From Tetraselmis striata (Eukaryota > Chlorophyta > Chlorodendrophyceae > Chlorodendrales > Chlorodendraceae), in contig VCJN01002949.1 in assembly GCA_006384855.1 (NCBI GenBank), positions 1 through 64,000 of the forward strand: DNA of 64,000 nucleotides, given 5' to 3'. The notes beneath the pieces are model-generated. The model worked only from the letters and a program-made list of their open reading frames with translations. It had not been told where the DNA came from and made no database searches. The position numbers and the translations under genes are program-made. How positions within the stretch are numbered: the stretch's first letter is position 1; every line of letters starts with the position of its first letter. Below are positions 12,369 through 39,948 of this stretch, piece after piece.

Positions 12369-13976
12369 ACTTCCTTTAGACCTTCCTCGGTGCGGCGCTT
12401 CTCACAGCTACAGCCGAGTGCGGCTCAACCATCCGCACACCCGCACATGGCGGCGCAACTAACCGCCTCCCGTACCATTCCACCACTGCGTCCGTCGGTT
12501 GTTACACTACGTGTTACAACTGGTTCGCAACGACCAAGTTTCGCGCGGGTACGTTACGCGCGAGACAGGCGCTACGAGCGCGAAGGGCGCGCAGGGCGGC
12601 CCTCTTACCGGAACCTAGCCCCGCAAACCCATACCGATGCTACTGCAAACCCGTCGAGCAGCTACCGGCCAACCGCCGGGAACCTATCTGCTGCTGCCGA
12701 GTACTTTGCGAACAGTAGTCGTACCGGTGGAACTCTGTCAGTAAAACGACGCACTTACGTAATTGACGAACCCGAAGATGTCGCTCCATGGGCTACTTCA
12801 TTGCGAGCTCGGCTGCAGGACGCGTTCGGCTCAGACGAGCGGGGCCAGCGGACGATCGACCTACTCTCCAGCTCCCTCAGCGCTCAGACACTCAAGAGCT
12901 ATGCTGGCCGGCTGTCTCAGTTCGCGGAATTCTGCCACGACTCCGAGAACATCAGCCCGCTGGAGGCGACTACTGCGACTGTCGTTCGGTACGTTGCCTG
13001 GATCGGCGAGCGGGGGCACATCGCCGCTAAGTCACTGCAACCTTACCTGTCTGCGATCAACACGTTCTTCGAGCTGCACAACCTCGAACCAATCGCCAAG
13101 GACAGCCTGCACTTAACTTCAGCAAGGCGTGGGCTGATGCTGCGTCAGCGCCGACTGGACGCTGCCCCTGTGCGTGTCCCTCTGCCTGCGGATGTGGCTT
13201 ACCGCTTCGTCACAAAGGCCGAGCTGATTGTGTCTGCTCCCTACCCAGAGTACCACCACAACTTCCGGGCCCTCCTGGCCTCGGTTGTCAACTTTATGTT
13301 CTTTGCCAGGGGCCTTACTGGCGTGTCCTGTCGAGTGCGAGACGTGCATGTCGACAACTACAACATCACCCTGCAAGTGTACCGCGAGAAGGGTCGCGCT
13401 GGCCGACGGGGACCCGACGACCTGCGCGTACTTCTCCTTCCTGTGTCCGAGCACCCTCGAGTGGCACGTCTCTTGCACCACTTCATCGACAACGTCCAAT
13501 CTGTCCCCCTGGTTACTGTTGGCTTGGCTACATCAAACTTCTGGGCTGTCACTGCGGCCGAGCAGTCAAAACCTTGGACTGCGGCTACAATGTCAGACTG
13601 GCTGTCTGCAGCCATCAGTCTAGTCAACGCTGCCCCCCCTGCTGGCACTTCCTGGACTTCACACAGTCTTCGCAAGGGCGCAGCTTCTGCAACGAACGCC
13701 ATCGGAGTGCCATTGTCCCACATTCGCTACCAAGGCGGTTGGGCCACTAACTCTGACGTCGTTCTGGACTACATCGACCCCAACGTTCTTCCTTCACCTG
13801 GCGCATGGTTCTTCTTTGGACACATCGCCCCCCTCCGTCCGCCACTTCCAAGTCCAACAGGACTCCGCAGCGGTGGCCTTCCCAGTGCCTCCTTCAGGAC
13901 TTGGCGCTACCTCTTCTCCGTCAATCCACCGCTCTCTCCGTTCGCTCAAGACTGGCAAAACCAGACTCAACTTTGA
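12369..13976 (+). CDS. Tyrosine recombinase of YR element A
   Basis: Open frame to the stop at 13974-13976. There is no ATG at the frame's beginning; the first candidate ATG is near 12447. Counting from codon 12390 the complete catalytic set can be read: R307 (F-A-R-G-L-T-G), K334 (Y-R-E-K-G-R), H425 and R428 (H-S-L-R-K-G), W451 (G-G-W-A-T-N-S) and Y461 (V-L-D-Y-I-D). A helical core-binding region precedes it (S-L-S-A-Q-T-L-K-S-Y-A-G-R-L). YRs of this type integrate circular retroelement DNA by site-specific recombination. The frame is the same as gag's, separated by TGA-CGG and, in this copy only, a further TAG at 12366-12368 that is CAG in copy B. This copy looks catalytically intact. Confidence 0.85.
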   Translation, partial: TSFRPSSVRRFSQLQPSAAQPSAHPHMAAQLTASRTIPPLRPSVVTLRVTTGSQRPSFARVRYARDRRYEREGRAGRPSYRNLAPQTHTDATANPSSSYRPTAGNLSAAAEYFANSSRTGGTLSVKRRTYVIDEPEDVAPWATSLRARLQDAFGSDERGQRTIDLLSSSLSAQTLKSYAGRLSQFAEFCHDSENISPLEATTATVVRYVAWIGERGHIAAKSLQPYLSAINTFFELHNLEPIAKDSLHLTSARRGLMLRQRRLDAAPVRVPLPADVAYRFVTKAELIVSAPYPEYHHNFRALLASVVNFMFFARGLTGVSCRVRDVHVDNYNITLQVYREKGRAGRRGPDDLRVLLLPVSEHPRVARLLHHFIDNVQSVPLVTVGLATSNFWAVTAAEQSKPWTAATMSDWLSAAISLVNAAPPAGTSWTSHSLRKGAASATNAIGVPLSHIRYQGGWATNSDVVLDYIDPNVLPSPGAWFFFGHIAPLRPPLPSPTGLRSGGLPSASFRTWRYLFSVNPPLSPFAQDWQNQTQL

Positions 13977-28957: not shown

Positions 28958-31383
28958 GATCTAAACTAGTTTATGGGGTTTCCATCCTTGACCTAACCGC
29001 TTTTTAGCTACAAGTGTTGCTCAGTGGTACGGGAACTAGTAACTGTTGTTGCGCCCTTGTTGGGTGCAGCACGAGTAGACATAAAAGCAGCCAGAACAGC
29101 TGAGCCTGCCATCTTCCAGTTTTCGCTGCGTTCCACGCAGCGATGTAAAAACTGTCTCGTAACCCGTTGCGAGCAAGGTCACCCCAGGTTGTTCAAGACC
29201 ACACCCGGCTCGCCACCCGAGTGTGATATTCTCGTCCGTACGTCCGTGCGTTACCATGTTAGATGGAGAAGAACCCGTCGCCGAGCCGACGTTGCAGTCG
29301 CTGAACGCAGATATGAGGGCCCAGTCTTCATTACTGCGAGAGCTGGCTACAGCTGTGGCACAATTGACGGCTCGTGATCGCGTTGATGTTGATGTTGATG
29401 GAGATGTCGATGTTGATGGAGAAGGGGCACATGGCTCCGGCTCAGGGCAGCGCTTCGCGGGACAGCCGACAGGCAGCGGGGGAGCCGCAGAGCGCCCCGA
29501 CTTGCTAGAGCTAGCCCAGAGCGGCCGTGTCGGAGCAAAATCCGTGAGTGCCGAGGATGATTACCTCGCGGTGCCAGAGCTATTGCAGAGAGCAGAGTCT
29601 GGTTACGAGGCCGTTCGACCGGTCAGCCGAGTGCCTGGACTTTTCCCTTTGAGCACCGACCTAACGAACGAGTACCTCAAGCAGGATGATCGGCGTCTGC
29701 CGGCCCAGGAGGAGTACTTGTGGATGTCGTGTTTCGGGGCCCACATGGCCGCCCTTTTCGTGTCGCTCGACGAGCTGCTACCTTACGTCCCCGCCACTAA
29801 CCAGGACTTCACCCCCTACCTCGCGAGAGCTCGGAATCACGCCGAGGCCATCGACAAGGCGTTTCGTTTTCGTCTAGCCTTCCTGCGGAAACTGAATGAG
29901 ATCAAGCGGGTGCACGGTGACCAAGGTGTTCTGGACGTGCTGCGAGCTCAGCATTTTCAGCCTGCTTCGGAGCATTTGGGCTCTGCGATTTTTGGGGACC
30001 TCATGAGGGACTACGAGCGTCGTGTCTTCGAGGCGACCGTTGTCAGCAGCGCCAAGGCGACCGCTACTTCTCGAGTAGCGGCTGCAGCTGCAGGTCGCGG
30101 GTGTGGGCGAGGACGTGGCGGCGGACGTGGACGTGGCCGCGAAGGTGAGCACGAGTGACGGTGTGGGGCGCCGCTCGTCGGAGCTGCAGGAGCCTTGCGA
30201 GGCCACCTTTCGGTGACCGCCGCAAGACGCACCCTTGCAGCTCAACGGCGGGATGAGCGCCTTGTGTCAGGACCTGACCCCCCCACCTTACAGACTTCAT
30301 TTAGACCTTCCTCGGTGCGGCGCTTCTTACAGCTACAGCCGAGTGCGGCTCAACCATCCGCACGCCTGCACATGGCGGCTCAACCATCCGCCTTTCTTAC
30401 AACCCCATCTCTGCGTTCGTCGGTTGTTACACTACGTGTTACAACCGGTTCGCAACGACCAAGTTTCGCGCGTGTACGTTACGCACGTGACAGGCGCTAT
30501 GAGCGCGAAGGGCGCGCGGGGCGGCCCTCTTACCTGAACCTAGCCCCGCAAACCCGTACTGGAGCTACTGCAAACCCGTCCAGCAACTACCGGCCAACCG
30601 CCGGGAACCTAACCGTTGCTGCCGAGTACTTTGCGAACAGTAGCCGTGCCGGTGGAACTCTGTCAGTAAAACGACGCACTTACGTAATTGACGAGCCCGC
30701 AGCTATCGCTCCATGGGCTGCGTCACTGCGATCTCGACTGCATGACGCGTTCGGCTCAGACGAGCTAGGCCAGCGGACGCTCGACCTGCTCTCCAGCTCC
30801 CTCAGCGCTCAGACCCTCAAGAGCTACGCCGGCAGGTTGTCTCAGTTCGCTGAGTTCTGCCACGACTCCGAGAACATCAGCCCGCTGGAAGCGACTACTG
30901 CTACTGTTGTTCGGTACGTTGCCTGGATCGGGGAGCGAGGGCACATCGCAGCTAAATCGCTGCAGCCCTACCTGTCTGCCATCAACACCTTCTTCGAGCT
31001 GCACAACCTCGTCCCGATCGCCAAGGACAGCCTACACCTCACTTCGGCAAGACGTGGGTTAATGTTGCGTCAGCGCCGACTGGACGCTGCCCCTTTGCGT
31101 GTCCCTCTGCCTGCGGATGTAGCTTACCGCTTCGTCTCAAAGGCCGAGCTAATTGTGTCTGCTCCTTACCCAGAGTCCCACCTCGACTACCGAGCCCTCT
31201 TGGCCTCGGTTGTCAACTTCCTGTTCTTTGCCAGGGGCCTTACTGGCGTCTTCCTGTCGAGTGCAAGATGTGCATGTCGACACCTACAACATCACCTTGC
31301 AGATCTACCGCGAGAAGGGTCGCGCTGGCCGGCGGGGACCCGGCGACCTGCGCGTACTTCTCCTTCCAGTGTCCGAGCACCCT
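28958..31383 (+). mobile_element. Gag-YR retroelement copy B, 3'-truncated
   Basis: Begins GATCTAAACTAG like copy A and is collinear with it through gag and most of the YR. Homology ends at 31383 inside the YR. The following 114 bp are unrelated and lead into the 5' LTR of the Ty3 element, whose insertion or a linked deletion probably removed the rest. In-frame structure is gag-TGA-YR with no other stop up to the frameshift near 31250. Confidence 0.8.
29256..30158 (+). CDS. Gag-like protein of YR element B
   Basis: ATG 29256 to TGA 30156-30158, 300 codons. Collinear with the copy A protein, with the same acidic start (M-L-D-G-E-E-P-V), helical block and C-terminal RGCGRGRGGGRGRG box. It is longer because of an expanded Val-Asp/Gly repeat (GATGTTGAT units, about 29380-29420) in the linker, and an additional N-terminal segment. 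The stop context is GAG-TGA-CGG-TGT and the frame stays open after it. Confidence 0.65.
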   Translation: MLDGEEPVAEPTLQSLNADMRAQSSLLRELATAVAQLTARDRVDVDVDGDVDVDGEGAHGSGSGQRFAGQPTGSGGAAERPDLLELAQSGRVGAKSVSAEDDYLAVPELLQRAESGYEAVRPVSRVPGLFPLSTDLTNEYLKQDDRRLPAQEEYLWMSCFGAHMAALFVSLDELLPYVPATNQDFTPYLARARNHAEAIDKAFRFRLAFLRKLNEIKRVHGDQGVLDVLRAQHFQPASEHLGSAIFGDLMRDYERRVFEATVVSSAKATATSRVAAAAAGRGCGRGRGGGRGRGREGEHE

Positions 31384-31391
31384 CACTATGA
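30159..31391 (+). pseudogene. Tyrosine recombinase of YR element B, frameshifted and truncated
   Basis: Open in the gag frame from the codon after TGA. It retains the core-binding domain and reaches the F-A-R-G-L-T-G active-site Arg block, after which an extra T near 31250 (GCGTCTTCCTG against GCGTGTCCTG in copy A) shifts the frame. The Lys block is still readable in the shifted frame, then homology stops at 31383, so the HxxR, Trp and Tyr parts are missing. The linker codon that is TAG in copy A (12366) is CAG here. Confidence 0.75.
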
Positions 31392-31497
31392 GATTCAGAT
31401 GTGACGTAAATGTGCCCTACTGGTGACGCACGACGACATACGGGGACGATACGGGACGGACGAGGGACGTGGATTTCATACCCAGTAGCGACGACTA

Positions 31498-32032
31498 TGT
31501 GACAATAATGGCATACTCTGTACGGGTACTGTATGATCGTAGCATCATTCATGTATTCATGTACGAGTACCTGCTGCTGTATCGTATGTGTGAGCGCGTG
31601 TGTCACGCGCCACAATACGAGTACTGGTGGATGATGAATCATGAGATGAGTCCTACTGGTACCGGTACACTGTTCAGTAGTAGTTACGGGATAATACGCA
31701 TGTGCGTACCCGTAGCGGGCATATATGTATAATGCACCTGCCTCTGTAACATCAGTTGTATACTTGTGTATAAACTGATGTGTCAACTACATGTGCGGAG
31801 GTCTCTAAGCGACGACCTCCTGTTCGACACTTCAAGGCACGACTCTCCACGGTGACGCGCTTAGCAGTGCGCGTGCCGCTTGGTGGTGGCTAGCTGTGAG
31901 CTAGCCATACGCATAAATAGCGGCGGGTGGTGACAACGTTGTAACCATTGTTTCTTTCTCTCTCTGCTGCCTTCTGTGTGTTTACGACAGCCTTGTCTGC
32001 TTGACCTGCGTGAGGCACCCTAGACTGTCGCA
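31498..32032 (+). repeat. 5' LTR of the Ty3 element
   Basis: 535 bp, TGTGACAATAATGG ... GACTGTCGCA, with TG/CA ends. A CATAAATAG TATA-like box lies at about 31912. Three hairpins are conserved in both LTRs: 31749-31781 (arms ACATCAGTT/AACTGATGT), 31797-31820 (GGAGGTC/GACCTCC) and 31887-31907 (TGGCTAGC/GCTAGCCA with a 5-nt loop). A TC-rich tract follows near 31950. Confidence 0.95.
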
Positions 32033-32111: not shown

Positions 32112-33869
32112 ATGTCCGAGTCGATGAATTCTGCTGGCAAGAGCCGAGAGCTGCTGCTCAACGAGGAAAGTTCTGTCGACCTGTCGACTACCAAGGTTTG
32201 TGCAGCCGTGGTGGTGACTTACGGTAAGGGTCACTCGGTCGAACGCCAAGTGATTCTGACGACTGAACCGAACGCTAGATCGACTCTCTTCTTACCTGTC
32301 GGAAAGTCGATAGCGTCTGACAAGTCTGTGCGCGGCACGGCGGTGCGCAAACTGCGTGAAGAGACTGGCTTGCTTGTCGATGAAGATGATTTAGAATTGT
32401 TTGACATTCTCACCATCGAGGGCATGCGTTGTTTCTTATATGCATCTAAGCTATCGGCGAAGCAGATAGCGAATGAGATGCGCACACCAGAGAGATCGCA
32501 CGCCTTAGTCATGTCGCATTTAGTAGCACCGGTGGTTGCAGCTGGTGAAGAACTAAATGTTGATGATGGCGGCGCTGCATTACCCGACGTCGCGCGCACC
32601 TTCCCTGAGAGTATCACCCTAGACCCGGAGTCTGAGGATTCGTACTCCGTGAGCATTGCATTGAACAGTCAAGGCAAGCCTGTGCCGACGACTGTGTGGT
32701 ACCCTCCGTTCATGATTCATACTGCGGTAAGTGATTCATGGGCAACCATTTATAAGTCTGTGTTGAATGGTTTCTGGATGAACCGTTCATACCCTGAGCT
32801 TCCTCAACAATTCGCATTTAGGTATGACTCTTGTGAGTCCCCTATCTGGCATGCTGTGCATCGTTATCTAGTTGTAGATCCGATGGCAACTGACCTCAGC
32901 AATATAACAATCACTGACATACCATGGTATGAGACGCGTGATGCACAACTAACTGAGTCCCAGAGGAAGTCTGCTCAAACCCAGCCCAAGCAAGATGGCC
33001 AGGATGTCCTCAAGCTAGATGTATGGCTGACTGGACTACCGGAGCTGCTTGGCACTGTGGGACTGAAGTCCACAACTGCATCTGGTCTTGCATATGCCGT
33101 GCAGACTCTGAGTGGCAAGTTCCAGCGTTGGTGGCAGGGATTTGATTCCAAGCCTCCTTCGCTGCGTCCTACCAACGCTGCAGAGTTTGTGAAGGCAGTT
33201 AGAGACTCACCATTGATGCATGACATAGTGCATGATGCATGCATAGAGCTTGATGGCATCAAGCAGGTGTCTGCTGGTCCCCAAGACTCTCCCTTGGATT
33301 ATAAGGACTTTGTGCAGACCTTCAACGATGTCCTAGCAAGGACCAGACTAACCCTTCCTGATGAGTTCATGGTCCTTAAGTTTGCATCTGCATTGAGTCA
33401 CAATAAGCTTAAAGAGATTGCCCATAAGTTTGTGACTGACCAGAAGCGAGCTGGACAACCATCGACACTCGCTGAGCTACAGCAGTATACAACGGCGATG
33501 GTTGGGAGCAACAAGGCGCTTGGCAATGCGGCTAAGCCTGTGGCCAATGGACATCCTGCTGGCAATGGCAATGGAGGACATGACTCCAGGAAGAAGTCCA
33601 AGGCTGCCAACATGAGCAAGCGCAACCGTGGAGATGATGCTCCACCTGTCGCAACCAATGGACGCCACACCAACAACGGCAAGAGGCAGAAGTCCAGCGA
33701 CGGGAAGCAGAAGGGTAATAACACCACAACACCTGGCAGAAAGATAGTAGATTATCTTAATCATGTCAAAATGCATGAGCCTGAGAAGTATGCTAAGCAT
33801 CTGGCTGCTAAAACATGCTTTAAGTGTGGTGAGGCTCACCTTCTGAAAGACTGCCCTAAGATGAAATAG
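32112..33869 (+). CDS. Gag with N-terminal Nudix-like domain and zinc knuckle
   Basis: 585 codons, ATG 32112 to TAG 33867-33869. Residues about 28-115 look like a Nudix fold: strands C-A-A-V-V-V-T-Y and V-I-L-T-T, then L-P-V-G-K-S-I, then A-V-R-K-L-R-E-E-T-G-L-L (residues 77-88). Against the Nudix box, the E-E-T-G-L end is kept (E83, E84) but the box Gly and two Glu positions are altered, so hydrolase activity is doubtful. Residues about 300-460 form the helical Gag core (W-L-T-G-L-P ... K-F-Q-R-W-W-Q-G-F ... L-T-L-P-D-E-F). A Lys/Asn-rich basic region follows, then C-F-K-C-G-E-A-H-L-L-K-D-C, a CX2CX3HX4C knuckle. Gag would package element RNA. The Nudix call is a fold inference from pattern. 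Confidence 0.8.
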   Translation: MSESMNSAGKSRELLLNEESSVDLSTTKVCAAVVVTYGKGHSVERQVILTTEPNARSTLFLPVGKSIASDKSVRGTAVRKLREETGLLVDEDDLELFDILTIEGMRCFLYASKLSAKQIANEMRTPERSHALVMSHLVAPVVAAGEELNVDDGGAALPDVARTFPESITLDPESEDSYSVSIALNSQGKPVPTTVWYPPFMIHTAVSDSWATIYKSVLNGFWMNRSYPELPQQFAFRYDSCESPIWHAVHRYLVVDPMATDLSNITITDIPWYETRDAQLTESQRKSAQTQPKQDGQDVLKLDVWLTGLPELLGTVGLKSTTASGLAYAVQTLSGKFQRWWQGFDSKPPSLRPTNAAEFVKAVRDSPLMHDIVHDACIELDGIKQVSAGPQDSPLDYKDFVQTFNDVLARTRLTLPDEFMVLKFASALSHNKLKEIAHKFVTDQKRAGQPSTLAELQQYTTAMVGSNKALGNAAKPVANGHPAGNGNGGHDSRKKSKAANMSKRNRGDDAPPVATNGRHTNNGKRQKSSDGKQKGNNTTTPGRKIVDYLNHVKMHEPEKYAKHLAAKTCFKCGEAHLLKDCPKMK

Positions 33870-36800
33870 GGGTGCCCTTATTCTGCTGCTGACAGCTCAG
33901 TAGATAGGGATGTAAGTGATGTTTGTGTTACATCATGCTGTCCAGTAACTGTCGAGTCGCATGACTGCGAAGTTACTGTTGCCGATATGTCATTGGCACC
34001 TGAGGTATCCGCATTATTGTCTAATGCACGTCTGAATGACGATATACCTGTGACGAGTACATGTTCGAGTGACGATGTCGTCATCTCTGAGAGTAGTAAC
34101 GACTATGTTGAGTCGCCTACTGATGAGAACTCGAATAGTGTACGCGAGTCTGGTACGACTTTGCCAGTAGCCTGTGTAACGGGTGCTCGGAAAGTTTCGA
34201 CTCATCGTCGCGTAAAGGCTCTGAGGCGTCGTATGCCTAGAAAGACTGCAGTCAGTGCCGAGTGGCGACTGGTCGATAGAGTCTTCGATCCCTTACATGA
34301 GATGTTCCAGTTTACGCTGGAGGGCTGTGCGGATAATGAGGGTCTGAATACCCATCGAAACTTGCCGTTCTGTTCAGAACAAGATTCGATATTATCGCGC
34401 GACTTGTCGAATGAACGTGTGTTTATTCACCCTCCATGGCATATGACTGAGTCTATTGCGAGGCATTTTGAGCAATGCCGCAGTAGGGCTAAAGAACATA
34501 CTGTAGGAGTGTTTGTATTGCCTGCATTTGATAGATTCAGTGCTTTGACAAAGCATTGGAAACTATTGCAGCAATACCCGGCAAAGACACCTTTGTTCAC
34601 CAGGTGGTCTCATAAAAATGCCACAGTCCAGGAAGATGTTAGACCGCCAAAGTATGGGGTTAACATTTGGTTAGTTGATGCTAACTGTGCTTTTCCTGAT
34701 GACTTTGTACCTAAAACTGTCACAAGTCCAAATGTGAGTTTTAACGTGGACTCTGCAAAAGTTGCAGATTCTAGCGTTGGTATTGGTGAACGTGCATCTG
34801 AGTCTATAAATGAGTGTGATGCTGTCAATGTGACTGATCCATCATTTTGGAGTATGCAAAGGCAAAGTTTGCCTCAGATTGCTTCTTTGACTCGTTGGGA
34901 TGACCCCAGGCCATTGTTGAAAGTTAATGTGACAATTAACGATGACGCCGTTGTGGATGCACTGGTTGATAATGCGGCATCTTTAGATTTTATATCTGAG
35001 GACTTTGTGCGCAGAAACAACTTGCAGATACAAAAGTTGAAAGCCAGAACACCTGTCCGTTTGGCTAATGGTCAACGTGTCTCATGTTGCCATACAACTG
35101 TTGTGTCTCTGTCTGTTGGAGGACATGTATTTGAGAATCGAGTATTTTATATACTGCGTGAGCTCAAAGTCTCCGACATTGTATTGGGTTTAACTTGGCT
35201 TGATGAAGCGCAAGTTACCATTAAGTATGGTACGGAACGTATCATGACTTTAATGGATGGAACCCATGTACCTGTTGTAATAGTGGGTCGTACTCCTGCA
35301 TGTAGCATGATTACTTCCACTAGGGTACAAAAGTTGATGCGCAAAACTGCTCGTGCGTCTAAGCATAATTCTTTGGCTGAATTCTATGTCGTTGAAATGT
35401 CGGTTATAAAGGATGATCCTGACCTGCATTTAGACAATGCTATGACACCAGAGCAAAAGGATGCTATTCGTCATTTGTTGTATGACGAGTTTCCTGAAAT
35501 TTTGCGTCCAGTCAACAGGCCGCCTGTTCATCGGCCATGGGATCACAAAATTGAGTTAACTGGCAAAATGAAACGCCAAAGACTTAATCGTTTGTCTCCC
35601 GCTGAACGTGCTGAATTGGATCGCCAACTCAAAGATGCGATTGCCGCTGGACTTGTTCGTCCTAGTCAATCTGAGTTTGGTTCGCCTATTCTTTTTGTTA
35701 AGAAGGCAGATGGATCCCTTCGGTTGTGTGTCGATTTTCGTGGGCTGAACGAGGTCACTCGAAAGGATATGTATCCTTTGCCGCGAATTGATGAAACGTT
35801 GGATTCTCTCCGCAATGCCCGTTGCTATACCCATCTGGATTTAGCATCAGGTTATTGGCAGGTTGCCATTGCAGAGGAGGACATCCACAAGACAGCGTTT
35901 CAGACACCTGATGGTCTATGGGAGTGGACTGCAATGCCATTTGGTTTGTGCAATGCCCCAGCCACTTTCCAGCGCATGATGAATGACATCTTGAGACCAT
36001 TTTTGCGTGACTTTGTGGTGGTGTATCTGGATGATATATGTATATATTCAGATAATTATGATGACCACATAAAGCACCTTCGTTTAGTTTTTGAGAAACT
36101 GAATGAATATAATCTGAGGTTGCAATTAAAGAAATGTTTCTTTGGCATGCAATCTATGGATTATTTGGGGTATACCGTCGCTGATGGTAAGTTGTCTGTT
36201 TCAGAGGCCAAAGTAGCTGCAGTTAGGGATTGGCCTGTCCCTAAAACTCAGAGTGAAATCAGAAGTTTTGTACAATTCTGCAATTTCTACTCTAAGTTTA
36301 TTCATCATTTCAGTGATTTAACTGCACCATTGACTGACTTATTGCGTAAGTCTAAACCAGTTCATGTTGACTGGTCACCGGCGTGTCAGGAAGCCTTTGA
36401 GACCCTTCGTCTGCGACTGATTTCCGCTCCGTGTCTTTCCATTCCTTCCATGGGGGCGGATGCGACGTTCACCGTAGCGACAGATGCGTCCAACGTAGGG
36501 CTTGCTGCAGTGCTACTGCAGGACCAAGGAGGAGGTCCTCAACCAGTGAGTTACTGGGCGCGAAAGCTGAATGCAGCTGAGCGTGGTAATACCTACAGTG
36601 CTTATGATTTGGAAGCTTTGGCTGTCTGTGAATCAATTAAGCACTGGCGTTGTTACCTTGAAGGGTGCTGTCGATTCCTTGTTGTCTCAGATCATGACAC
36701 CCTGCGTCATCTGCTCAGGCAACCGGCAGAAAGGTTGAACCGGCGACAAGTGCGCTATGTACGCGACTTGCAGCCGTTTGTTGGGTCCATATCTCTTGCA

Positions 36801-37130
36801 TACCGAAAGGGCAAGTGGAATGAAGCCGATCCGTTGTCGCGTAGACCGGATTTTAAGCCGATTGGTTTCGGTGGCTTATATTGGACCGGGGATGTGCCGG
36901 ACGCGGCTGAATCACTCGTGAGTGAACATCGCCCATGTACTGCGGTATTGTCGGCTGTAAGTGCGTCGTCACTTAGCCTTGATGACAATATTCTCCACCT
37001 TATTAAGGCTGGATATGCAGAGGACGCGTTCTACTCCTTATGGGGGGGGGTGGAAGCAGTCCGGTCATGTGGTAGAGCACGATGGTTATTTTTGGAGACA
37101 TGGACGTCTTTGCATACCAACCAATCGTGA
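33870..37130 (+). CDS. Pol part 1: MTase-like domain, protease, reverse transcriptase, RNase H
   Basis: The frame is open from the codon after gag's TAG; the first ATG is 33987 (1047 codons from there). Residues from that Met: about 90-235 resemble a Dam-like adenine methyltransferase, with C-A-D-N-E-G-L-N, F-I-H-P-P-W (motif IV, N/D replaced by H) and V-F-V-L-P. Protease about 310-430 with V-D-N-A-A-S at D328, where D-T/S-G is usual. RT about 520-740 with F-G-S-P-I-L-F-V-K-K, M-P-F-G-L-C-N-A-P and Y-L-D-D (680-683). RNase H about 820-950 with T-D-A-S. The frame terminates at 37130 after a G9 run at 37042-37050, where the following integrase frame takes over; eight Gs would keep one frame. 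Confidence 0.92.
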   Translation, partial: GCPYSAADSSVDRDVSDVCVTSCCPVTVESHDCEVTVADMSLAPEVSALLSNARLNDDIPVTSTCSSDDVVISESSNDYVESPTDENSNSVRESGTTLPVACVTGARKVSTHRRVKALRRRMPRKTAVSAEWRLVDRVFDPLHEMFQFTLEGCADNEGLNTHRNLPFCSEQDSILSRDLSNERVFIHPPWHMTESIARHFEQCRSRAKEHTVGVFVLPAFDRFSALTKHWKLLQQYPAKTPLFTRWSHKNATVQEDVRPPKYGVNIWLVDANCAFPDDFVPKTVTSPNVSFNVDSAKVADSSVGIGERASESINECDAVNVTDPSFWSMQRQSLPQIASLTRWDDPRPLLKVNVTINDDAVVDALVDNAASLDFISEDFVRRNNLQIQKLKARTPVRLANGQRVSCCHTTVVSLSVGGHVFENRVFYILRELKVSDIVLGLTWLDEAQVTIKYGTERIMTLMDGTHVPVVIVGRTPACSMITSTRVQKLMRKTARASKHNSLAEFYVVEMSVIKDDPDLHLDNAMTPEQKDAIRHLLYDEFPEILRPVNRPPVHRPWDHKIELTGKMKRQRLNRLSPAERAELDRQLKDAIAAGLVRPSQSEFGSPILFVKKADGSLRLCVDFRGLNEVTRKDMYPLPRIDETLDSLRNARCYTHLDLASGYWQVAIAEEDIHKTAFQTPDGLWEWTAMPFGLCNAPATFQRMMNDILRPFLRDFVVVYLDDICIYSDNYDDHIKHLRLVFEKLNEYNLRLQLKKCFFGMQSMDYLGYTVADGKLSVSEAKVAAVRDWPVPKTQSEIRSFVQFCNFYSKFIHHFSDLTAPLTDLLRKSKPVHVDWSPACQEAFETLRLRLISAPCLSIPSMGADATFTVATDASNVGLAAVLLQDQGGGPQPVSYWARKLNAAERGNTYSAYDLEALAVCESIKHWRCYLEGCCRFLVVSDHDTLRHLLRQPAERLNRRQVRYVRDLQPFVGSISLAYRKGKWNEADPLSRRPDFKPIGFGGLYWTGDVPDAAESLVSEHRPCTAVLSAVSASSLSLDDNILHLIKAGYAEDAFYSLWGGVEAVRSCGRARWLFLETWTSLHTNQS

Positions 37131-38496
37131 CATCATCAATAAGATATTGTATGAGCTACATGATTCTGTTGGTCACCGTGCTTATGCAAGCACCTTGGCA
37201 CGTGCCTTGGACCGTTTTTGGTGGACACGCATACGACATGACGTGAAAACCTATTGTGAACAATGTTCGGTGTGCCGGCGTGTTCGTGCACGTCCGCAGC
37301 CACCTGCACCAACACAGCCCTTACCAGTACCGCCACGTCCATGGCATACGGTTGGTTTGGATTTTATAACCGAGTTACCTGAGAGTAATGGTTATAATAC
37401 TATGTTGGTTGTGTGTTGCCATCTGTCCCGGCAAGCACATTTTATTCCAACCACAGTCAACGTGACTGGTGGACAGGCAGCTGAATTATTTCTGAAGGAA
37501 GTATTCAGGCTGCATGGAATACCTCGTGTGATCGTCTCTGATAGAGATCCACGGTTCCTGTCTGCATTCTGGCAAACTCTGTGGCGGAGACTTGGCACTA
37601 AATTGAACATGTCTAGTGGCCAACATCCTGAAACAGATGGTTTGACCGAACGCATTAATGCCATAGTCACTGAGTTGGCTCGTGCGTTTTGTTGTTTCGA
37701 TGGTTCAAACTGGGTAGACCAGTTACCATTGATGGAATTTGCGTATAATTCCAACAAAGCACTTGGCATTGAGCATGCACCATTTGAGGTTATGTATGGT
37801 TTCAATCCTGAAACGCCTCCGGATGTATTGTTTGGTATGAGACCAACAATAGCATTCTCTCGTGATGCTCAGCAACGTATCCAAGATATGAAGGAGATTC
37901 ACGAGTTGGTTCGGTCAGTGTTGGCTGTCCATAAAGATGAATTGACTGTTCGACCTAGTGTTAGGCAACAGCGCAATCCTCCTATCTTCAATGTTGGAGA
38001 TAGAGTATCTGTGGATACCCGTCTGCTTAAGGTCAAAGGTCAGCCTTGCAAAAAGCTGATGGACAAGCAGCTTGGCCCATTTTCTATTGTAGAGAAAATT
38101 GGCGGTCATAGTTATCGACTGAAATTACCTGCTGGTGTTAAGTTGCACCCAGTATTTCATGTTAATAACTTGAGACCCTGTCCCACTGCGCCGTTGCGCC
38201 CGCATGTACCTCTTGTTGTTGGTACCGGTGACGACTCTGATGATGAGTATGAGATTGACAAGATTACCAGCGTTAAAATCGGTTCCATGCCCGGTTTACG
38301 TGGTACTCAGTTGCAATTTCTTGTTCACTTTGCGGATGAGTCTATTGCCCCTGTTTGGCATCGTTTGTTTGATGTTAAAAGGACAATAGCATTGCAGGAT
38401 TTTATGGCTACTCCCAAATGGTTGGACTTTGTAAAGTCACCTGAATTTGTGGAGCATATGCATAAATACCCGGCACGTGTGCCGACTGCAAATTAA
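37051..38496 (+). CDS. Pol part 2: integrase with GPY/F module and chromodomain-like C-terminus
   Basis: Overlaps part 1 in another frame and has no start of its own that makes sense; it is the continuation of pol beyond the G9 run. The zinc-binding HHCC is H-D-S-V-G-H ... C-E-Q-C. The catalytic triad is D (G-L-D-F-I), D (S-D-R-D-P-R-F) and E (T-D-G-L-T-E-R) with 35 residues between the last two. A GPY/F-type module (L-G-P-F-S-I-V-E-K-I-G) precedes a C-terminal block Y-E-I-D-K-I ... F-L-V-H-F ... D-F-M-A-T-P-K-W that looks like a chromodomain, used by chromoviruses to target chromatin. Stop at 38494-38496, just before the PPT. Confidence 0.92.
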   Translation, partial: WKQSGHVVEHDGYFWRHGRLCIPTNRDIINKILYELHDSVGHRAYASTLARALDRFWWTRIRHDVKTYCEQCSVCRRVRARPQPPAPTQPLPVPPRPWHTVGLDFITELPESNGYNTMLVVCCHLSRQAHFIPTTVNVTGGQAAELFLKEVFRLHGIPRVIVSDRDPRFLSAFWQTLWRRLGTKLNMSSGQHPETDGLTERINAIVTELARAFCCFDGSNWVDQLPLMEFAYNSNKALGIEHAPFEVMYGFNPETPPDVLFGMRPTIAFSRDAQQRIQDMKEIHELVRSVLAVHKDELTVRPSVRQQRNPPIFNVGDRVSVDTRLLKVKGQPCKKLMDKQLGPFSIVEKIGGHSYRLKLPAGVKLHPVFHVNNLRPCPTAPLRPHVPLVVGTGDDSDDEYEIDKITSVKIGSMPGLRGTQLQFLVHFADESIAPVWHRLFDVKRTIALQDFMATPKWLDFVKSPEFVEHMHKYPARVPTAN

Positions 38497-38547: not shown

Positions 38548-39065
38548 TGTGACAATAATGGCATACTCTGTACGGGTACTGTATGATCGTAGCATCATTC
38601 ATGTACGAGTACCTGATGTATCGTATGTGTGCGCGCGTGTGTCACGCGCCACAATACGAGTACTGGTGGATGATGAATCATGAGACGAGTCCTACTGGTA
38701 CCGGTACACTGTTCAGTAGTAGTTACGGGATAATACGCATGTGCGTACCCGTAGCGGGCACAAGTATAATGTGCCTGCCTCTGGAACATCAGTTGTATAC
38801 TTGTGTATAAACTGATGTGTCAACTACATGTGCGGAGGTCTCTAAGCGACGACCTCCTGTTCGACACTTCGAGGCACGACTCTTCACGGTGACGCGCTTA
38901 GCAGTGCGCGTGCCGCTTGGTGGTGGCTAGCTGTGAGCTAGCCATACGCATAAATAGCGGCGGGTGGTGACAACGTTGTAACCATTGTTTCTCTCTCTGC
39001 TGCCTTCTGTGTGTTTACGACAGCCTTGTCTGCTTGACCTGCGTGAGGCACCCGAGACTGTCGCA
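38548..39065 (+). repeat. 3' LTR of the Ty3 element
   Basis: 518 bp, TGTGACAATAATGG ... GACTGTCGCA. Shorter than the 5' LTR mainly through loss of an 8-bp partial repeat (CATGTATT) and small indels. Hairpins and TATA-like box are kept. Confidence 0.95.
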
Positions 39066-39948
39066 CGTTACTTAGTACCCTAGAATAGTGAATCGTGTTT
39101 AGCGCTTACTTCCCGGTATAGTCCGCTCGTGTGCTGCGTAGCATTGCGCGAAAACGCCCTCATGTCGGCCGCAACTGCGGACGAGCAGTGCCCGTTCGAC
39201 TCACGGAGGCGGGGGACGATACTCAAGGCGGCCTTAGGCCCGAGCCGAACGGGTACCACCTGCCCAGGAAAAAAGGATAGGTCCATAGCCCATCTCATAA
39301 AGATGCTATACAGAAAATGAGCTAGAGGTCGGAGGCTACAAGGACGGTGCCCCGTGTGCCCCCGATTCAAGAAACCGTCCGATCTTATTGGAACTCGCGT
39401 TTTCGGAAATACACCTCCGGCCTCAACTCCTCCCGCAGGAGCGGCTGAGGCAGCTCTTTACTTATCGATCGTATGAACACTGGTAGAGGCTCATACGTAG
39501 GGGTGACGCTCGCTGGCGGCCAGTTTGCGGTCAATCTCGGTCGATGCCGGCCCGATGGACCAACCTACCCGGATTTTCCGCGCTCGACCCCCTCCCGCAT
39601 AGGCATCCCCTGCCACACGCAGCTTGCTATTTAGCCCGCCGCACATGTACCGTGCCATGGCTTGGCTCCTAGGAGTGCGGTAGATCCCATGAGTGGCCCA
39701 TGAGGTAGTCGGTGCACGGTGCCCCATCTCCCCCCGTATTTTGAGCCGAGATTAGATAAACGGGCTGAATGAGGGGCCGCTCCGCCACTACGGCACGTAC
39801 ATGAGTGCTCGACGCGTCAACCATCTACCTACGCCTACCGAAGGCCACTATACTCATATATGCGAGCGATAGAGTTCAATACGGGTCGATTCGGCTGCAT
39901 GTTGGTGCACCGGGAGCCGATGGAGTGACGGATAGCTATATGATAATC
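39066..39948. other. No gene recognised
   Basis: Unassigned sequence after the 3' LTR. Short frames on both strands lack motifs. It is not the continuation of YR element B, so the Ty3 element is not simply inserted into that copy. Confidence 0.4.

What the first reader, a model, noticed from the sequence alone, without database searches (positions are those of the whole stretch)
33840..33990. Ty3 Gag and Pol are one frame separated by a single TAG: probable readthrough element
Gag ends AAA-TAG (33867-33869) and the next codon, GGG, begins a frame that stays open for more than 3.2 kb through protease, RT and RNase H. The first ATG of pol is 117 nt downstream, which would skip part of the conserved frame. 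Most Ty3-type elements use one fused ORF or a frameshift; an in-frame stop is the gammaretrovirus strategy. TAG is used as a genuine stop in the Arc1p-like host gene here, so global codon reassignment is not the explanation.
Basis: partly seen in the sequence, partly recalled or inferred. Interest (0 to 1): 0.8.

Follow-up and report, generated by a model that had tools for sequence, protein, structure and literature searches.

The report
Leaky stop in green-lineage Ty3 retrotransposon
A mobile element in what looks like a green-plant or algal genome seems to make its enzymes only when ribosomes occasionally ignore one conserved stop codon, inside a short sequence that matches the leaky-stop signal of a family of plant RNA viruses.

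Summary
In detail: Gag ends AAA-TAG at 33867-33869, the same frame is then open for 1086 codons, and the first ATG is 117 nt on. It is no private mutation. The genome has 150 matches to the junction; of the 100 listed, 99 read TAG and one CAG. A diverged sister lineage (Gag C-terminus 32% identical, RT 88%) keeps AAA-TAG-GGG-TGC-CC. Of 40 junctions fetched next to Gag matches, 36 align: 28 TAG, 2 TAA, 2 sense (near-duplicate decayed copies), 4 disrupted. In some sister copies 196 or 212 codons precede the first in-frame AUG, reaching into or past a conserved methyltransferase-like domain, so a downstream AUG start is unlikely. A hairpin 5 nt after UAG is predicted well in the sister lineage, less well in the window's; covariation within each lineage is nil. 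The core UAGGGGUGC equals that printed for turnip crinkle virus (Tombusviridae). The host's uL3 is nearest to plant ribosomes and its gene ends in TAG. Best reading: programmed type III UAG readthrough making Gag-Pol. Ty3 elements with in-frame UGA are known in fission yeasts, so this is a new variant of a known kind. No RNA or protein evidence was available; splicing is the main rival left.

The parts
31498..32032 (+). 5' LTR (approximate ends; TGTGACAA...GTCGCA)
   Evidence: Direct repeat with 38548-39065: 506 identities, 10 mismatches, 17 gap positions over the aligned part; ends set by eye
32112..33869 (+). gag ORF, 585 codons plus TAG; Nudix-like N-terminus, CCHC knuckle (CFKCGEAHLLKDC) at the C-terminus
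   Evidence: PF00293 NUDIX E 1.5e-4 for the first 163 aa, zf-CCHC only E 0.29
33867..33869 (+). gag TAG stop, proposed readthrough codon
33864..33877 (+). Conserved core AAA-TAG-GGG-TGC-CC
   Evidence: Same in window and sister lineage
33875..33909 (+). Predicted bulged stem-loop, starting 5 nt after TAG (CCC ... GGG)
   Evidence: clear in the sister lineage, weaker here
33891..33942 (+). Possible pseudoknot: loop GACAGC (33891-33896) with GCUGUC (33937-33942)
   Evidence: prediction only
33870..37130 (+). pol frame in frame with gag: linker, methyltransferase-like domain, protease (motif VDNAAS at 34965), RT (YLDD at 36024), RNase H; lost after the nine-G run in this copy
33987..33989 (+). 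First in-frame ATG of pol; not at this place in the sister lineage
34149..34773 (+). Conserved pol N-terminal domain with HPPW motif (34428), adenine-methyltransferase-like fold
36961..38496 (+). Integrase part, in another frame in this copy
   Evidence: PF17921, PF24626
38548..39065 (+). 3' LTR (approximate ends)

Best explanation
The UAG at 33867 is a programmed, leaky gag terminator. Most ribosomes stop there and release Gag. A minority, favoured by the 3' context GGG-UGC-CC and by a bulged stem-loop (perhaps a pseudoknot) that begins 5 nt after the stop, decode UAG as an amino acid and go on to make a Gag-methyltransferase-like-PR-RT-RNaseH-IN fusion, which sets the Gag to Gag-Pol ratio. 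It is a type III readthrough signal. Shown: position and frame, conservation of stop and context in two lineages, lack of a usable AUG in sister copies, TAG as stop of a host gene. Inferred: that readthrough happens, its rate, the residue inserted, and that the stem-loop stimulates it.
For: TAG in 99 of 100 listed junctions of 150 matches. AAATAGGGGTGCCCT unchanged in the diverged C221 element and K-stop-G-C at all 16 places of a second pattern, which by design contains the TAG. In 40 loci fetched next to Gag matches, not chosen by the motif, 36 align at the stop: 28 TAG, 2 TAA. Gag and pol frames both open around the TAG in at least six copies. Codons before the first in-frame Met: 39 in the window, 60 in C221, 196 in C1320 and C2675, 212 in C1802 and C2768; C1320 has a 1509-codon open pol frame; the stretch after the linker shows pN/pS 0.33-0.61 among sister copies. 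Window against L039: 8 of 20 synonymous sites differ before the Met position against 69 of 95 after it, Fisher P 0.006. Hairpin in the sister lineage, synonymous-shuffle P 0.026-0.069 in five copies. Type III definition UAG plus 3' G or purine-rich octamer plus 3' structure (PMC3542737, passages); UAGGGGUGCUU in turnip crinkle virus (PMC7150753, passages).
Against: No RNA, ribosome or protein data. Three decayed copies have a sense codon and four of the 36 aligned junctions are disrupted. No covariation within either lineage. In the window copy the hairpin is weak (shuffle P 0.18) and the 101-nt fold prefers a hairpin that pairs the stop itself (z -1.0). The protein linker 33870-33986 is weakly constrained. 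Low divergence just downstream may partly be recombination. Tca2 has a similar layout and showed no readthrough in S. cerevisiae (PMC2194720, abstract and passages).
Confidence: 0.82

Rival explanations
1. Alternative splicing: a short in-frame intron around the stop is removed in a fraction of transcripts, joining Gag to Pol.
For: GT-AG pairs that would remove the stop in frame exist: 14 to 61 per copy in six copies; a donor-like GGTGAG or GGTAAG lies 38 nt before the stop in five of the six as listed (all but L039, whose site is weaker), with acceptors in both lineages.
Against: Such pairs are expected by chance in any sequence. The donor lies in the zinc knuckle, which would be cut from Gag-Pol. 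The conserved block AAATAGGGGTGCC would be intron interior with no reason to be kept. One predicted spliced junction (window family) has no copy in the genome at up to 3 mismatches; other junctions were not searched.
Confidence: 0.07
2. Pol is made by itself from an internal start (AUG 33987 here, or a non-AUG or internal ribosome entry), not as a fusion.
For: The window family has an in-frame AUG after 39 codons in the copies of that type checked, L043, L093 and L095; the linker before it is weakly constrained as protein. The predicted relatives P0004 and P0005 begin at a Met, but that is how genes are predicted.
Against: The AUG is absent at this place in the sister lineage, where 60, 196 or 212 codons precede the first Met, in C1320 within a 1509-codon open frame. 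A stop-free run of 195 codons has P about 9e-5 by chance. Gag has many AUGs upstream.
Confidence: 0.06
3. The TAG is a mutation in a dead family, without function.
For: Many copies are decayed, and this one has a frame loss in pol.
Against: The copies with both frames open carry it, and a lineage with very different Gag carries it with its 3' context.
Confidence: 0.03
4. UAG is a sense codon in this host.
For: Some green algae read UAG as glutamine (recalled).
Against: The uL3 gene ends in TAG at the expected C-terminus; the long gag and pol frames hold no other TAG.
Confidence: 0.01

Closest known systems
Tombusviridae replicase readthrough signal (turnip crinkle virus RSE, carnation Italian ringspot virus)
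   Same: UAG followed by GGG-UGC: nine letters UAGGGGUGC equal to the motif UAGGGGUGCUU printed for turnip crinkle virus, with a 3' stem-loop (PMC7150753, PMC3234231, passages); green-lineage host
   Different: Retrotransposon, not an RNA virus; the hairpin is shorter; long-range pairing with the 3' end, required there, was not looked for here
Gammaretrovirus gag-pol readthrough (murine leukaemia virus)
   Same: In-frame UAG-G between gag and pol and a possible pseudoknot; PMC3234231 (passage) prints UAGGGGUGU as the sequence around the MMLV stop
   Different: The eight-nt purine-rich spacer (PMC2194720, passage) is not met here: the letters after UAG are GGGGUGCC, and the stem starts after 5 nt. 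I recall a different MLV sequence from the one printed in PMC3234231 and did not resolve this
Fission-yeast Ty3 elements with an in-frame stop (Tj1, Tosmo1-3, Tcry1)
   Same: Ty3 type, in-frame stop between gag and pol, conserved context (PMC10085805, passages)
   Different: UGA followed by CT there; UAG followed by GGG here
Tca2 of Candida albicans
   Same: In-frame stop, short spacer and predicted pseudoknot (PMC2194720, abstract and passages)
   Different: UGA; Ty1/copia type (recalled); its junction did not read through in S. cerevisiae
Epsilonretrovirus readthrough
   Same: UAG-R and extended stem-loop (table in PMC3542737, passage)
   Different: Not compared further

Membership tests
Type III stop-codon readthrough signals (class as given in PMC3542737) | UAG stop | tested here: met
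Type III stop-codon readthrough signals (class as given in PMC3542737) | 3'-adjacent G or purine-rich octamer | tested here: met
   UAG-GGG (G alternative; the octamer GGGGUGCC is not purine-rich throughout)
Type III stop-codon readthrough signals (class as given in PMC3542737) | 3' RNA structure | tested here: inconclusive
   Predicted stem-loop in both lineages, no within-lineage covariation
Type III stop-codon readthrough signals (class as given in PMC3542737) | Measured readthrough product | not testable with these tools
   No translation or protein data
Tombusviridae-type signal | UAGGGGUGC core | tested here: met
   against PMC7150753 (passage)
Tombusviridae-type signal | Bulge in the stem-loop pairs with a distant 3' element | not tested
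   No search for long-range pairing was made
Gammaretrovirus-type signal | Eight-nt purine-rich spacer, then compact pseudoknot | tested here: not met
   Letters after UAG are GGGGUGCC; predicted stem starts after 5 nt
Fission-yeast Ty3 UGA readthrough group | UGA followed by CT | tested here: not met
   UAG followed by GGG
Ty3-type LTR retrotransposon | LTRs, and order PR, RT, RNase H, IN | tested here: met
Ty3-type LTR retrotransposon | RT falls in the Ty3 clade of a tree | not tested
   No tree was built; domain order and Pfam hits only

The most novel reading that the evidence does not exclude
Ty3 retrotransposons of a green-lineage host have settled, by convergence or exchange, on the same UAGGGGUGC core as plant Tombusviridae, with a 3' stem-loop. 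The motif would then be a general leaky-stop signal for green-plant ribosomes, here dosing a Gag-Pol that carries a Nudix-like and an adenine-methyltransferase-like domain.
Probability: 0.45. Interest if true: 0.7.

Novelty: new variant of a known kind. Interest (0 to 1): 0.6.

Why it matters
UAG-G readthrough with a 3' structure is known from retroviruses and plant RNA viruses, and Ty3 readthrough from fission yeasts with UGA. A Ty3 family with a virus-like UAG signal, with 150 junction matches in one genome, would be an independent case of the same solution to the Gag:Pol ratio and a natural test of what the UAGGGGUGC core does in green cells.

Tried and rejected
Private mutation and codon reassignment: rejected on copy counts and on a host gene ending in TAG. 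Downstream AUG start: disfavoured by sister copies. Covariation within lineages: tested, none. Protein-level purifying selection in 33870-33986: tested, not shown. A possible third lineage at C586 (L083, CAG-TAG-GGG-TGC-C): a single decayed copy, its relatives matching only the knuckle region; not used as support.

A search with a piece of P0005 for further families gave 150 scored matches. Of the 12 loci returned, 8 show the junction. Of 17 more loci fetched upstream of other matches (L111-L127), one shows it (L125); the rest, read by eye in three frames, look like relatives that have lost the Gag C-terminus and junction. L128-L130, from the pattern CAGTAGGGGTGCC, look like chance matches.

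No Rfam match near gathering level. No relative in viral contigs. Protein database: one Gag relative and two pol relatives, without DNA. AlphaFold of the Gag N-terminus alone: pLDDT 38, useless. The chitin synthase search was uninformative. The full-length sliding window and its permutation (0 of 20000) are not used: beyond about codon -155 and +250 frameshifted copies are misaligned, which inflates the background. Papers: none listed by the searches announced, in title or shown abstract, readthrough in a green-lineage Ty3 element; only a few of the listed papers were opened and most subscription papers are not held.

Rows left out of hairpin alignment A1: L046, L058, L063, L064, L066, L070, L078, L079, L083, L085, L087, L100 (no matched 3' end, a disrupted junction, or the CAG copy). 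A2 leaves out L048, L068, L071, L080 (indels).

L071 closes differently, and in window-type copies the UAU/AUA pairs are my drawing, not the minimum-energy fold. I also had said that the signal is nearer to Tombusviridae than to murine leukaemia virus, which PMC3234231 does not bear out. For this I lowered the main confidence from 0.85 to 0.82.
Full report
What is there. The window holds an LTR retrotransposon of Ty3 type. The LTRs, about 31498-32032 and 38548-39065, differ by 10 mismatches and 17 gap positions against 506 identities. Gag (585 aa) ends AAA-TAG at 33867-33869. The same frame then runs 1086 codons through protease, RT and RNase H. The first in-frame ATG is at 33987. In this copy the pol frame is lost after a nine-G run at 37042-37050 and integrase lies in another frame; 27 of 92 RT matches in the genome have a 1541-codon open frame instead.

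The stop is a family trait. The window belongs to an unnamed assembly of 224 Mb in 2903 contigs. A 35-nt pattern over the junction, with the stop codon left free and up to 3 mismatches, matched 150 places, the reversed control none. The 100 listed all match without mismatch outside the free codon: 99 read TAG and one, C1335, reads CAG; the other 50 were not shown. In C1335 the Gag sequence upstream of about the last 33 residues is replaced by other sequence. These copies are nearly identical, so the count shows what recent source elements carried, not selection.

A diverged sister lineage gives the better test. The element at C221 has an RT 88% identical and a Gag C-terminus 32% identical to the window's over 157 residues; in the pol N-terminal region synonymous sites are near saturation (pS 0.72 over 139 codons). 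Yet AAATAGGGGTGCCCT is unchanged. The pattern HAAATAGGGGTGCC found 16 places, and all 16 read K-stop-G-C in the Gag frame; this pattern contains the TAG by design. To avoid choosing copies by the motif I took 40 loci next to Gag matches out of the 124 rows; the choice was mine and not random. Thirty-six align at the stop: 28 TAG, 2 TAA, 2 sense, 4 disrupted by indels or rearrangement. Four do not align there. The two sense copies, CAG and CAA, are near-duplicates of each other (449 identities, 11 mismatches) and decayed.

Pol can hardly start elsewhere. In the window, 39 codons precede the first in-frame Met; in sister copies 60 (C221), 196 (C1320, C2675) or 212 (C1802, C2768). C1320 has a 1509-codon open pol frame. 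A start at its first Met would leave out most of the conserved domain. The stretch after the linker shows pN/pS 0.33-0.61 among sister copies. A stop-free run of 195 codons has P about 9e-5 under equal codon use.

Nucleotide constraint after the stop. Window against L039: before the Met position 8 of 20 synonymous sites differ, after it 69 of 95 (rounded; Fisher P 0.006). Two sister pairs give P 0.03 and 0.08. Nonsynonymous divergence of window and L039 is alike on both sides, so the linker is weakly constrained as protein. Among sister copies the low divergence goes on for some 70 codons with pN near pS, so recombination may add to it.

Structure. In the sister lineage the minimum-energy fold of the 48 nt after UAG-GGG is CCC/GGG, then CAG/CUG stacked on an eight-pair stem, with a loop that holds GACAG; L044, L045, L055 and L102 agree, L071 closes differently. 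In the window lineage the inner stem CUACUGA/UCAGUGG and CCC/GGG are predicted in the older copies L095 and L098; the UAU/AUA pairs between them are my drawing. In the window copy itself the stem has a C-U mismatch or shifts register, and the 101-nt fold prefers a hairpin in which the stop itself is paired. Against synonymous shuffles P is 0.026-0.069 for the five sister copies and 0.069-0.18 for the three window-type ones; against dinucleotide shuffles z is -2.2 and -1.5 for L039 and -1.0 and +0.3 for the window. The drawn pairs form in 97.4% and 93.9% of cells in the two lineages against 21-48% when slid, but the structure was drawn from these sequences, and control shuffles show no covariation: no pair changes on both sides within a lineage. 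Between the lineages one pair (A-U to G-C) changes on both sides, and two more if UAU/AUA is accepted; MAFFT places the gap otherwise. The loop GACAG(C) can pair with (G)CUGUC 33-40 nt further on. I call the hairpin likely and the pseudoknot possible.

Host. uL3 of this genome scores 588 bits with chain 8azw_r; the first seven chains score 565-588, the eighth, 7r81_E1, 518. From recall 8azw, 7qiw and 4v3p are tobacco, tomato and wheat, and 7r81 is Neurospora; the tool names no organism. The alignment with 8azw shows a fair number of differences. I take the host for a green alga or another green-lineage organism; this is inference. The uL3 gene ends in TAG.

Comparison. PMC3542737 (passages) defines type III readthrough as UAG, 3' G or purine-rich octamer, and 3' structure, and lists Tombusviridae as UAG-GGR. 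PMC7150753 (passages) gives UAGGGGUGCUU at the start of the turnip crinkle virus element, with seven nts invariant in more than 35 Tombusviridae; here it is UAGGGGUGCCC. PMC3234231 (passages) calls the MMLV sequence similar and prints UAGGGGUGU for it. PMC10085805 (passages) describes Ty3 elements of fission yeasts with in-frame UGA in a conserved 8-bp context. PMC2194720 (abstract and passages) found no readthrough in S. cerevisiae for Tca2 despite a predicted pseudoknot: layout alone is no proof.

Verdict. Programmed UAG readthrough 0.82; splicing 0.07; internal start 0.06. A new variant of a known kind.

Noticed in passing
34149-34773: Conserved pol N-terminal domain between the stop and protease, with an HPPW motif (NPPW in P0004 and P0005). 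A low-confidence AlphaFold model (mean pLDDT 59) matches the cap-specific adenosine methyltransferase (6irw, E 2.1e-4) and phage N6-adenine methyltransferases (E 8e-6). PMC6338049 (passages) mentions such domains in DIRS elements.
   Followed up: partly
32112-32600: Gag starts with a Nudix-like domain (PF00293, E 1.5e-4 on this piece), unusual for a Gag; a search of papers for Nudix, Gag and LTR retrotransposon listed 6 papers, none by title on this.
   Followed up: partly
37042-37050: Nine-G run where the pol frame is lost. Eight of 92 RT matches, this one included, have the same 1086-codon frame: repeated slippage, assembly error or a propagating broken form.
   Followed up: no
30195-31391 and 12390-13976: ORFs with phage-integrase N-terminal domain matches (PF02899), perhaps tyrosine-recombinase retroelements of DIRS type.
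   Followed up: no
31493-31497 and 39066-39070: The five bases flanking the LTRs (by eye GACTA and CGTTA) do not match, so no target-site duplication is seen.
   Followed up: no
L039 against window: RT is 88% identical but the Gag C-terminus only 32%: the two lineages may be mosaics.
   Followed up: no
33862-33882: In the window family the stop can itself pair in a hairpin AUAGGGG/CCCUUAU; older copies of the family have G at one of these places.
   Followed up: no
L111-L124, L126, L127: A group of degenerate relatives that have lost the Gag C-terminus and the junction but keep the methyltransferase-like domain.
   Followed up: partly
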